64,000 nucleotides of DNA from Bernardetiaceae bacterium (GTDB taxonomy: Bacteria > Bacteroidota > Bacteroidia > Cytophagales > Thermoflexibacteraceae), in assembly GCA_025056255.1 (NCBI GenBank), contig JANWVT010000014.1, positions 25,465 to 89,464 on the forward strand. The letters are read 5' to 3'. Position numbers and translations under genes: made by a program. This document shows positions 7,755 to 54,937 of this stretch, piece by piece. The notes under the pieces are model-generated. The model saw nothing but the letters and a program-made list of their open reading frames with translations. It did no database searches and was not told the origin of the DNA. The first letter of the stretch is position 1, and each line of letters starts with the position of its first letter.

Positions 7755-8330
7755 TTACCGAGTCGTGCTGTCATTAAGATTTTTTCGGTTAATGAATCGG
7801 CGAATTTCCTCCACCGACAGGCGGTCGTTCAAGTGAGCTGCATATTTCAATTCGCGGATAATTAATTTTTCGTCTAATAAGAACTCCGCAGGCATGGTGC
7901 TAAAAGATTCGCCATCGGGCATGGCATATACTGGTAAATTGTTGAGCTTAGCTTTGATTGCTGTTTGGATAAAGCTGGTTAGGTGGCTGTAAATGGATTT
8001 GCGCATCGAATCTTCCAGCCCATAGATACCATACCATATTTTCTCGGGGTCAGAAATAATCGGAATAGGGGAGAGCCCTTGGTGAAAAATACTGTTGAGA
8101 ATGGTCTTTTCCTTAGACTCAAAAAAGAAAATCATTTCCAAATTAGACTCGGAAAACTCCTGACTGTATTTTTTTAAGACATGCACCCGCATATTGCAAA
8201 AAGGGCAACCTGTATGCCTGAAAAATGCAATCAATACGCGTTTTCCTTCATAGGAAGCCAAATCAATGAGTCTTCCAAATACGTCCTTCAACTGAAAAAG
8301 AGGAGCAGAAACATTAAGCGAAAGCCGCAT
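7755..8330 (-). CDS. AhpC/TSA-like peroxiredoxin-family protein
   Basis: Thioredoxin-fold FFRHTGCPFCNMRVHVL with CPFC motif. Confidence 0.8.
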   Translation of the reverse strand: MRLSLNVSAPLFQLKDVFGRLIDLASYEGKRVLIAFFRHTGCPFCNMRVHVLKKYSQEFSESNLEMIFFFESKEKTILNSIFHQGLSPIPIISDPEKIWYGIYGLEDSMRKSIYSHLTSFIQTAIKAKLNNLPVYAMPDGESFSTMPAEFLLDEKLIIRELKYAAHLNDRLSVEEIRRFINRKNLNDSTTR

Positions 8331-8452
8331 AAACCATGCTTTTGTATGTAACTACGTTTAAAAAATACAAAGGTTTATCTAATCAACCTACGGATGGCAT
8401 ACCTGTGCAAAAGTTGGAGCTCCTGCCACTGTTTGTTTCCGTCCAAATAGGA

Positions 8453-8537
8453 ATAACCTACCCCTGCCACCATTACATCTTTTATGCAGCGTAGGGTAGA
8501 AATGCTGCATGGTGATTTTATTGGACAAGTAGGTTAT
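8453..8537. ncRNA. Candidate structured element with three nested stems
   Basis: ATAACCTAC (8453-8461)/GTAGGTTAT (8529-8537); CACCAT (8468-8473)/ATGGTG (8509-8514); GCAGC (8486-8490)/GCTGC (8504-8508). All nested and in a large intergenic gap. Confidence 0.35.
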
Positions 8538-51937: not shown

Positions 51938-52003
51938 GCCCCAAAAGTACTACTTTTAGATTAGGTATATTTCTTGCTATTGCTACCGCCGAGAGATATT
52001 TCT

Positions 52004-52840
52004 ATGAAAAAATACGCATTGTTTGCCAGTGTTGGACTGTTGCTGATTAGTACAACCCAAGGACAAACCCCAATAAAAATGAGCGAAAAAGGTTTTGCGG
52101 CTACTGTTGCACGCAAACAAGACAAAGATGTTGCTGCTCTTTTAAGAAATCCGCCTGAAATGGTATTGGTAGAGGGTGGCAATTTTTTGATGGGTAGCGA
52201 AGATGGCGAACCCGAGGAACAGCCTATTCACAAAGTTTCGGTAAGTAGTTTTTATATTGGCAAATATGAAGTTACCGTAGCCCAGTACCGAGAGTTTTGT
52301 AAAGAAACAGGGCGCGCTATGCCCGAAACACCCAAGTGGGGCTGGCAAGATACGGCTCCTATTGTTAATGTGAGTTGGAATGATGCTAATGCCTACTGCA
52401 AATGGCTGACTCAAAAAACAGGACAGCCCTACCGCCTTCCCACCGAAGCTGAATGGGAATTTGCTGCAAGAGGAGGTAATAAAACCAAAAAGTTTCGCTT
52501 TGCTGGCTCTAATAACTTAGATGAAGTGGGGTGGTTCGATAAAAATTCTAACAAAAGAACACAGCCCGTAGGAGAAAAAATGCCTAACGAATTGGGACTC
52601 TATGATATGAGCGGCAACGTGTGGGAGTGGGTACAAGATTGGTTCGATAGTGACTACTATTCCAAAAGTCCTGAAAAAGACCCCCCGGGACCTTCCAGAG
52701 GCTCGATGCGTGTAATGCGGAGTGGCTCATGGATTAATTACGAAGAAGACAATCGCATTGCCATCCGCATCAGCAACATGCCGCACGACACCGGTCCGTT
52801 TTTTGGTTTTAGGGTAGCCCTAAGTGCTGCCAAAAACTGA
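52004..52840 (+). CDS. SUMF1/formylglycine-generating-enzyme-like protein, exported
   Basis: Signal MKKYALFASVGLLLISTTQG; MVLVEGGNFLMGSEDGEPEEQPIHKVSVSSFYIGKYEVTVAQYREFC, YRLPTEAEWEFAARGG, NELGLYDMSGNVWEWVQDWF, GFRVAL. Confidence 0.92.
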   Translation: MKKYALFASVGLLLISTTQGQTPIKMSEKGFAATVARKQDKDVAALLRNPPEMVLVEGGNFLMGSEDGEPEEQPIHKVSVSSFYIGKYEVTVAQYREFCKETGRAMPETPKWGWQDTAPIVNVSWNDANAYCKWLTQKTGQPYRLPTEAEWEFAARGGNKTKKFRFAGSNNLDEVGWFDKNSNKRTQPVGEKMPNELGLYDMSGNVWEWVQDWFDSDYYSKSPEKDPPGPSRGSMRVMRSGSWINYEEDNRIAIRISNMPHDTGPFFGFRVALSAAKN

Positions 52841-52841
52841 C

Positions 52842-52979
52842 TCAACAGTCCTTTACAGGGCAAGGGATGGGTTTACCTCTCTTAATTTTTCTACCTCCTT
52901 TGCCTGAAACACAGCCACTTGCCAATGCAAGCAATATGCAGCAAGATACAAGCAACTTTATTTTAACGCGGATAAACAT
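52842..52979 (-). CDS. 45-aa putative micro-lipoprotein (third in cassette); not in supplied ORF track
   Basis: Translated by hand: MFIRVKIKLLVSCCILLALASGCVSGKGGRKIKRGKPIPCPVKDC*; lipobox LASGC; 17-nt overlap with the upstream gene. Confidence 0.6.
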   Translation of the reverse strand: MFIRVKIKLLVSCCILLALASGCVSGKGGRKIKRGKPIPCPVKDC

Positions 52980-53109
52980 CTAATTTTACTCTCTTAGGTT
53001 TCCTTGGCGTCCATGCTGTTCGGGGCGCATGATAGCAAGCTACCATTCCTACAATAGCTACCAACAGCAATAGCTTGCTTATCGAGAAATACTGCTTATA
53101 CTTATTCAT
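52963..53109 (-). CDS. 48-aa putative micro-lipoprotein (second in cassette); not in supplied ORF track
   Basis: MNKYKQYFSISKLLLLVAIVGMVACYHAPRTAWTPRKPKRVKLDVYPR*; lipobox GMVAC; TAATG overlap with upstream gene. Confidence 0.65.
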   Translation of the reverse strand: MNKYKQYFSISKLLLLVAIVGMVACYHAPRTAWTPRKPKRVKLDVYPR

Positions 53110-53273
53110 TACCACATTCGGAGTCGTTTGTTCACTTTTGTATATTCAATTGGTTTGCCAGTGCGAATCGGCTTAGATTTGCGCGGCGTCCAACCTGTGT
53201 GAGGTGCATGTACACAAGAAGCTACGCTTGCTGAGAACACCGCGAAAAGTATCAGATAAATAAGTCGTTTCAT
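53109..53273 (-). CDS. 54-aa putative micro-lipoprotein (first in cassette); not in supplied ORF track
   Basis: MKRLIYLILFAVFSASVASCVHAPHTGWTPRKSKPIRTGKPIEYTKVNKRLRMW*; lipobox SVASC; shares HAPxTxWTPRKxK with second and GKPI with third. Confidence 0.7.
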   Translation of the reverse strand: MKRLIYLILFAVFSASVASCVHAPHTGWTPRKSKPIRTGKPIEYTKVNKRLRMW

Positions 53274-53290: not shown

Positions 53291-54937
53291 ATGAATCATC
53301 CTGTTTGTATTCGCGCAAATGTAGTCAATATTGCCCAGCGCCACATTTTTCCGGCAGAAGTACATATTAGCGAAGGTATTATTGCTGCCATTCGCCCTAT
53401 GAATGCACCCTGCCAGCATTTTCTGTTGCCCGGCTTCATAGATGCACATGTACACATTGAAAGTTCCATGTTAGTGCCGGCACAATTTGCAAGATTAGCA
53501 ACGCTGCACGGAACAGTTGCTACTGTTTCCGACCCACATGAAATAGCTAACGTAATGGGTATAGAAGGCGTACGCTACATGGTGCACAATGGCAACAGCG
53601 TACCTTTTAAATTCTTTTTTGGTGCTCCTTCCTGTGTGCCAGCTACTGGCTTTGAAACAGCAGGGGCAACGCTCCATGCCGAACAAATTAGAGAACTTTT
53701 TCAAAAAGACCGGCTCAAATACCTTGCCGAGATGATGAACTATCCGGGTGTTTTGCACCAAAACGAAGAAGTAATGGCAAAAATTGACATAGCAAAATCG
53801 TTAGGCAAACCCATTGACGGACACGCCCCCGGTTTGTGCGGAGAACTTGCGCGCCAATATGCAGCAGCAGGTATCAGCACCGACCACGAATGCTATACCG
53901 CTCAGGAAGCATTAGACAAACTGGCAGCTGGCATGAAAATTATCATACGCGAAGGTAGCGCTGCCAAAAATTTTGATGCCCTTGCTCCGCTGCTCGACCA
54001 ACATTGGCAACAAATGATGTTTTGCTCCGATGACAAGCATCCCGACAGCCTTGTGGAGGGGCATATTAACCAACTGGCAGCGCGCGCTGTTGCCTTAGGG
54101 CTAGATGTTTTCAAAGTATTACAAGCCGCTTGCCTCAACCCAATACATCATTATGGATTGGAAGTAGGACAGTTACGAATAGGAGACCCAGCAGACTGTA
54201 TCTTAGTAGAAGACCTTACCCATTTCAAAGTATTGCAAACATGGATTAATGGAAAATTAGTTGCCGAAAACGGAGTACCCCTCATTAAAGCGCACCATTT
54301 TACACAAAAGCCTAATCACTTTTGTGTACAGCCCATTCAACAGGAAGACTTGCGTCTGAAAGCCACTTCCAACCTTGTGCGCACCATTGTAGCATACGAC
54401 GGTCAGCTTATTACCGGAGAAACCTACATGCCAGTTACTGCCGAAAATGGCTGGGCAATAGCCGACCCCACAAAAGACCTTCTCAAAATAGTAGTTGTGA
54501 ATCGGTACCGGAGTGCTGCACCTGCTATTGGTTTTGTAAAAGGCTTTGGTTTGCAGTGTGGTGCAATAGCCTCGTCGGTAGCTCATGACTCGCACAATAT
54601 TGTAGCTGTTGGAACTAATGACGAACTGCTTTGCCGAGCTATCAACGCTGTGATAGCAGCCAAAGGTGGCATTGCAGCTTGTAGCCCTCATACTACTAAG
54701 CTACTACCTTTACCCATTGCCGGGCTGATGTCAGACCAAGACGCATACTACGTAGCACATACCTACCAAGAAATAGATAGCTTTGCTAAAACCCTGTGTG
54801 CCCCCTACCCTTCTGCTATGAAAGCCCCTTTTATGACCCTGAGTTTTATGGCACTTTTAGTGATTCCATCCTTGAAAATGAGCGACTTAGGGCTATTTAA
54901 TGGCAATAAGTTTGAATTTTCTCAGGTTTTTTGCTGA
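53291..54937 (+). CDS. ade: Adenine deaminase
   Basis: LPGFIDAHVHIESSMLVPAQFARLATLHGTVATVSDPHEIANVMG, DGHAPGLCGELARQYAAAGISTDHECYTAQEALDKLAAGMKIIIREGSAAKN, CSDDKHPDSL, VAHDSHNIVAVGTNDEL. Confidence 0.95.
   Translation: MNHPVCIRANVVNIAQRHIFPAEVHISEGIIAAIRPMNAPCQHFLLPGFIDAHVHIESSMLVPAQFARLATLHGTVATVSDPHEIANVMGIEGVRYMVHNGNSVPFKFFFGAPSCVPATGFETAGATLHAEQIRELFQKDRLKYLAEMMNYPGVLHQNEEVMAKIDIAKSLGKPIDGHAPGLCGELARQYAAAGISTDHECYTAQEALDKLAAGMKIIIREGSAAKNFDALAPLLDQHWQQMMFCSDDKHPDSLVEGHINQLAARAVALGLDVFKVLQAACLNPIHHYGLEVGQLRIGDPADCILVEDLTHFKVLQTWINGKLVAENGVPLIKAHHFTQKPNHFCVQPIQQEDLRLKATSNLVRTIVAYDGQLITGETYMPVTAENGWAIADPTKDLLKIVVVNRYRSAAPAIGFVKGFGLQCGAIASSVAHDSHNIVAVGTNDELLCRAINAVIAAKGGIAACSPHTTKLLPLPIAGLMSDQDAYYVAHTYQEIDSFAKTLCAPYPSAMKAPFMTLSFMALLVIPSLKMSDLGLFNGNKFEFSQVFC

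What the first reader, a model, noticed from the sequence alone, without database searches (positions are those of the whole stretch)
52842..53273. Unannotated cassette of three overlapping, mutually related micro-lipoprotein genes
Seen directly: three minus-strand ORFs of 54, 48 and 45 aa, all below the ORF-track cutoff, each with a hydrophobic signal and a lipobox-like cysteine (SVASC, GMVAC, LASGC). Genes 1 and 2 share C[VY]HAP[HR]T[GA]WTPRK[SP]K; genes 1 and 3 share [RK].GKPI. They overlap in a chain (TAATG, then 17 nt), which suggests translational coupling. Mature peptides are very basic. The last stop codon falls 1 nt from the end of a convergent SUMF1-like gene, and the first start codon is only 17 nt from the ade start. 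Inference: a coupled set of surface or periplasmic micro-lipoproteins. Established knowledge offers one loose analogy: the entericidin EcnA/EcnB pair, tandem tiny lipoproteins acting as antidote and toxin.
Basis: partly seen in the sequence, partly recalled or inferred. Interest (0 to 1): 0.7.

Follow-up and report, generated by a model that had tools for sequence, protein, structure and literature searches.

The report
Conserved micro-lipoprotein operon of Cytophagales
Three tiny lipid-anchored proteins of 45 to 54 amino acids, found in no protein family library searched, turn out to be real conserved genes shared by many families of the bacterial order Cytophagales, and one of them ends almost everywhere in the same letters, PCPxKDC.

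Summary
In detail: three minus-strand ORFs (54, 48, 45 aa) with signal peptide and lipobox, chained by 1-nt and 17-nt overlaps. They are real genes. All four genomes of the genus keep the three frames and both overlaps; mature parts are 83-100% identical while signal peptides are 26-53% in all but the closest pair; dN/dS is about 0.1-0.3. Same-strand three-gene cassettes recur in two families. Gene 3, ending in PCPxKDC, is found in 82 of 196 genomes of the order, one match each, and not convincingly outside it. Genes 1 and 2 are paralogues (C...P...W-x-P); gene 3 is unrelated to them, contrary to the title. Two neighbourhoods recur: divergent from ade, and directly upstream of cmk. No Pfam or NCBIfam family is met. 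Mature parts are short, very basic, without predicted fold, and lack the acidic surface-export signal, so a periplasm-facing anchor is likely. Best reading: accessory docking lipopeptides of an envelope machine, the gene 3 cysteine pair forming a disulfide or metal site; that mechanism is inference. Toxin-antidote is disfavoured, and a tie to Nqr was tested and failed.

The parts
53109..53273 (-). gene 1: 54-aa lipoprotein, mature CVHAPHTGWTPRKSKPIRTGKPIEYTKVNKRLRMW (W-P family)
   Evidence: orthologues in G001-G003 65-78% identical; 35 of 196 genomes of the order match its profile, some by gene 2 paralogues
52963..53109 (-). gene 2: 48-aa lipoprotein, mature CYHAPRTAWTPRKPKRVKLDVYPR (W-P family, paralogue of gene 1); 1-nt overlap with gene 1 (TAATG)
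   Evidence: profile matched in 33 of 196 genomes of the order
52842..52979 (-). gene 3: 45-aa lipoprotein, mature CVSGKGGRKIKRGKPIPCPVKDC (PCPxKDC family); 17-nt overlap with gene 2
   Evidence: profile matched in 82 of 196 genomes of the order, one match each
53291..54937 (+). ade, adenine deaminase, divergent neighbour; an ade relative lies beside the lipoprotein genes on the opposite strand in 22 of 61 stretches examined
   Evidence: Pfam PF13382 and PF01979; neighbour clustering
51974..52840 (+). FGE-sulfatase (SUMF1-like) gene, convergent; not a recurrent neighbour, probably incidental
   Evidence: Pfam PF03781; not among the neighbour clusters shared by 4 or more stretches
53316..53323 (-). 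TACATTTG, match to the Bacteroidota -7 box TAnnTTTG, inside the ade 5' coding end, 50 nt upstream of the gene 1 ATG; possible promoter, confounded by ade codons

Best explanation
A conserved operon of Cytophagales that makes up to three micro-lipoproteins. Shown by sequence: real genes under purifying selection, signal peptide plus lipobox, basic mature parts of 20-46 residues, two families (W-P and PCPxKDC), recurrent chromosomal neighbourhoods. Inferred: after lipidation they stay anchored on the periplasmic side, probably of the outer membrane, because they lack the acidic export signal (about 0.75). Inferred and weaker: they act as unfolded docking peptides, accessory subunits of a larger envelope machine, in the way LptM works on LptD/LptE. 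The W-P motif, nine residues from the lipid in most members, would bind close to the membrane, the cationic tail would hold an acidic partner, and the two C-terminal cysteines of gene 3 would form a disulfide or bind a metal (about 0.35). Gene 3 is the widespread core; genes 1 and 2 look like an added, duplicated part.
For: Frames and both overlaps kept in four congeneric genomes, dN/dS about 0.1-0.3 where dS could be computed; mature parts 83-100% identical against signal peptides 26-53%, except the closest pair at 85-91%. Same-strand three-gene order in the f1 and f2 genomes measured, spacings -17 to +136 nt. Gene 3 in 82 of 196 genomes of the order, one match each, and no convincing match outside the order among 397 genomes of the phylum. 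Two further cysteines in 60 of 60 compiled gene-3 sequences, 58 ending PCPxxDC; 0 of 60 with an acid at +2..+6 against 13 of 24 longer lipoproteins from the same stretches; export signal described in PMC5080379. AlphaFold2 gives a signal-peptide helix and mature parts without regular structure at block pLDDT 57-63.
Against: No partner protein is identified and no expression or localisation data exist. Neighbours (ade, cmk, ispH) are housekeeping enzymes and do not point to an envelope machine. The acid-free +2..+6 stretch is partly expected from the basic composition, the background set is small (24), and the export signal was defined in other Bacteroidetes. Low AlphaFold2 confidence with 13-16 sequences does not prove disorder.
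Confidence: 0.4

Rival explanations
1. Electrostatic tether or coat: the cationic lipopeptides bind peptidoglycan or LPS phosphates from the inner leaflet of the outer membrane, as short stabilisers with no specific protein partner.
For: Net charge +4 to +16 in mature parts of 20-46 residues; no regular structure predicted.
Against: Sequence-specific conservation (W-x-P at a fixed distance from the lipid in most members, invariant PCP.KDC end in alignment A3) is more than charge alone needs.
Confidence: 0.2
2. Gene 3 is by itself a periplasmic metal or thiol-redox lipopeptide working through its C-terminal cysteine pair, for example metal hand-over or disulfide exchange.
For: Two cysteines besides the lipid cysteine in 60 of 60 compiled members, near the C-terminus; in Pontibacter the motif becomes PCPCDSN but keeps two cysteines.
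Against: No metal-protein or thiol-enzyme neighbour recurs; a link to Nqr failed, 34 of 82 gene-3 genomes have no nqrA match. The CPxKDC spacing is not the CxxC of thioredoxin folds.
Confidence: 0.2
3. Entericidin-like antidote/toxin lipoprotein pair.
For: Tandem tiny lipoproteins; 2 of 16 gene-3 members touch the entericidin B model at best E 0.025.
Against: One gene-3 match per genome in recurrent neighbourhoods, absent from the plasmid and phage collections, no Pfam match, and genes occurring without each other: gene 3 alone in several families, W-P genes alone in f4.
Confidence: 0.05
4. Chance ORFs, not genes.
For: Very short; matched by no curated family.
Against: Intact frames, purifying selection and order-wide homologues.
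Confidence: 0.01

Closest known systems
LptM (YifL), factor of LptD/LptE oxidative maturation (PMC10567701)
   Same: Micro-lipoprotein whose conserved stretch directly follows the lipid cysteine, with conserved chromosomal neighbours; 3 of 18 gene-2 relatives touch the NCBIfam LptM model weakly (best E 0.034).
   Different: No match over a cut-off, PF13627 not listed at E up to 1; very basic; duplicated; accompanied by a cysteine-ended lipoprotein; different phylum.
Entericidins EcnA/EcnB
   Same: Tandem lipoproteins of 40-50 aa.
   Different: No model met; distribution not that of a mobile toxin-antidote pair; genes found apart from each other.
NqrM, maturation factor of the Na+-translocating NADH:quinone reductase (from general knowledge, no paper read)
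   Same: Small, membrane-attached, with conserved cysteines; gene 3 lies upstream of cmk and genes read as nqrA-E in some genomes.
   Different: Occurrence not tied: 34 of 82 gene-3 genomes have no nqrA match.

Membership tests
bacterial lipoprotein | N-terminal signal peptide with lipobox and cysteine | tested here: met
   Seen in all three genes; lipid cysteine invariant in A1, A2 and A3
bacterial lipoprotein | lipid attached to the cysteine | not testable with these tools
   needs labelling or mass spectrometry
surface-exposed Bacteroidetes lipoprotein | acidic lipoprotein export signal just after the cysteine (PMC5080379) | tested here: not met
   0 of 60 gene-3 and 7 of 45 W-P sequences have an acid at +2..+6, none has two
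LptM | match to PF13627 or NF047847 over the cut-off | tested here: not met
   NF047847 best E 0.034 in 3 of 18 gene-2 members; PF13627 not listed
LptM | binds LptD/LptE | not testable with these tools
   needs pull-down or crosslinking
entericidin | match to an entericidin model over the cut-off | tested here: not met
   no Pfam match; NF007487 at best E 0.025 in 2 of 16 gene-3 members
entericidin | toxicity of one gene and antidote action of the other | not testable with these tools
   needs expression experiments
Nqr maturation factor | occurrence tied to nqr | tested here: not met
   34 of 82 gene-3 genomes without an nqrA match
type IX secretion accessory | occurrence tied to the secretion system | tested here: inconclusive
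   SprA matched in 181 of 196 genomes, so genomes with and without gene 3 nearly all have it

The most novel reading that the evidence does not exclude
The PCPxKDC lipoprotein is an unannotated envelope factor of Cytophagales whose terminal cysteine pair works as a redox or metal site, with the W-P lipoproteins as membrane-proximal docking peptides: an LptM-like micro-chaperone system that arose independently in another phylum.
Probability: 0.2. Interest if true: 0.75.

Novelty: new variant of a known kind. Interest (0 to 1): 0.55.

Why it matters
It adds two protein families that no library searched here describes, carried by a large share of one bacterial order, to the short list of micro-lipoproteins. 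Because gene 3 gives one match per genome and has a fixed C-terminal motif, deletion and pull-down in a cultivated member such as Thermoflexibacter ruber could find its partner directly.

Tried and rejected
Gene 1 to gene 3 homology: not clearly above shuffles. Nqr maturation: rejected by occurrence, 48 genomes with both, 34 with gene 3 only, 45 with nqrA only, 69 with neither. Type IX secretion: uninformative, SprA nearly everywhere. Known families: Pfam for the three window proteins and for alignments A2 and A3, NCBIfam for A1-A3, PHROGs for the three window proteins, PDB sequences for A3; nothing met; PADLOC was not searched. Rfam at gathering thresholds and tRNAs in the window: none. Promoter: TAnnTTTG lies within 190 nt upstream of gene 1 in 11 of 16 loci, mostly inside the ade 5' coding end; an equivalent site occurs in 8 of 23 ade loci with a cassette and 13 of 57 without, so it may only reflect ade codons. 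Mobile elements: gene 3 (an L012 sequence) has no match in the plasmid or phage collections. Literature: no paper in the library holds PCPIKDC and two searches on small lipoproteins gave nothing on this family.

Full report
What is there. The three minus-strand ORFs lie at the stated coordinates with the stated lengths, lipoboxes and overlaps. No Rfam family reached its threshold and no tRNA was found in the window.

They are genes. In the three other genomes of the same genus all three frames are intact, the gene 1/gene 2 overlap is 1 nt and the gene 2/gene 3 overlap 17 nt in each. Pairwise dN/dS is about 0.1-0.3 where dS could be computed; several pairs are saturated at synonymous sites. The mature parts are 83-100% identical while the signal peptides are 26-53%, except for the closest pair, G002/G003, at 85-91%.

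Two families. Genes 1 and 2 are paralogues of the form C...P...W-x-P; in 31 of 45 compiled W-P sequences the tryptophan is the ninth residue counted from the lipid cysteine. Gene 3 is separate: basic, with the end P-C-P-x-K-D-C invariant in the alignment of 16. In 60 compiled mature sequences there are always two cysteines besides the lipid cysteine, and 58 end PCPxxDC. These compilations were picked by profile match and motif, so they describe the family and are not an independent test.

Distribution. Gene 3: 82 of 196 genomes of the order, one match each; two of the 82 (G461, G496) are weak and miss the C-terminal motif. Gene 2 profile 33 of 196, gene 1 profile 35 of 196, the two profiles partly matching each other's members. 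In 397 genomes sampled across the phylum the strong matches are all in the order; the rest are weak and mostly miss the C-terminal motif or contain a stop. Pontibacter relatives carry a variant ending PCPCDSN divergent from ade, and one f13 genome a form ending PCPCDR upstream of cmk; calling these orthologues rests on position and motif.

Neighbourhood. Clustering covered 60 fetched stretches plus part of the window. In 22 of these 61 an ade relative lies beside the lipoprotein genes on the opposite strand; in 19 a same-strand gene of one cluster lies downstream, in most of them directly. I read that cluster as cytidylate kinase (cmk) and its followers as ispH and nqrA-E from their sequences; they were not scanned against a family library, except that TIGR00017 was used to find cmk elsewhere. 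Two f4 stretches (L281, L283) have both neighbours, and 7 of 27 cmk loci, nearly all from genomes without a gene-3 profile match, have ade beside cmk. An ancestral order ade / lipoproteins / cmk is therefore plausible. Vertical inheritance is inferred from this; no tree was built. The window's own genome has its cmk on another contig.

Cassette make-up. Three-gene cassettes are seen in f1 and f2; f15, f20 and f22 stretches mostly have one or two W-P lipoproteins before gene 3; f3, f5, f6, f8, f18 and f19 stretches show gene 3 without them; f4 has W-P genes without gene 3; in G004 and G006 the genes lie on separate contigs. Spacings in the cassettes measured run from -17 to +136 nt.

How it may work. 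The proteins lack the acidic export signal that places Bacteroidetes lipoproteins on the surface (PMC5080379), which points to the periplasmic side. AlphaFold2 shows only the signal-peptide helix; the mature parts have block pLDDT 57-63 and no regular structure. Short conserved stretches near the lipid and, in gene 3, at the C-terminus suggest docking peptides of a larger machine, in the way LptM serves LptD/LptE (PMC10567701). That is a comparison of function; membership in the LptM family was tested and not met. No partner is known, and no expression or localisation data could be obtained here.

What was excluded. A tie of gene 3 to Nqr by occurrence and homology of gene 3 to gene 1. A toxin-antidote role is disfavoured by distribution but was not tested directly.

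Noticed in passing
L057, L064, L068, L070, L073, L074, L079, L081, L085, L086, L093, L096, L106 (ade loci); L251; L305: Gene-3-like lipoproteins near ade or cmk with altered ends (PCPCDSN, PCPCESN, PCPTHDC, PCPCDR): two cysteines kept, spacing changed in most.
   Followed up: partly
L261 (G546), 7904-8478: Three tandem gene-3-like lipoproteins ending HPCPQIDC, SDCPGLDCGHTGKKK and HPCPTGDC.
   Followed up: no
L281, L283 (f4): Two W-P lipoproteins between ade and the cmk-like gene with no gene 3 found.
   Followed up: partly
L291, L293, L299, L301, L305, L306, L310: ade beside cmk in genomes whose gene 3 the profile did not find; L305 holds a variant form upstream of cmk.
   Followed up: partly
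window 53316-53323, minus strand: TAnnTTTG promoter-like box inside the ade 5' coding end; may be explained by ade codons.
   Followed up: partly
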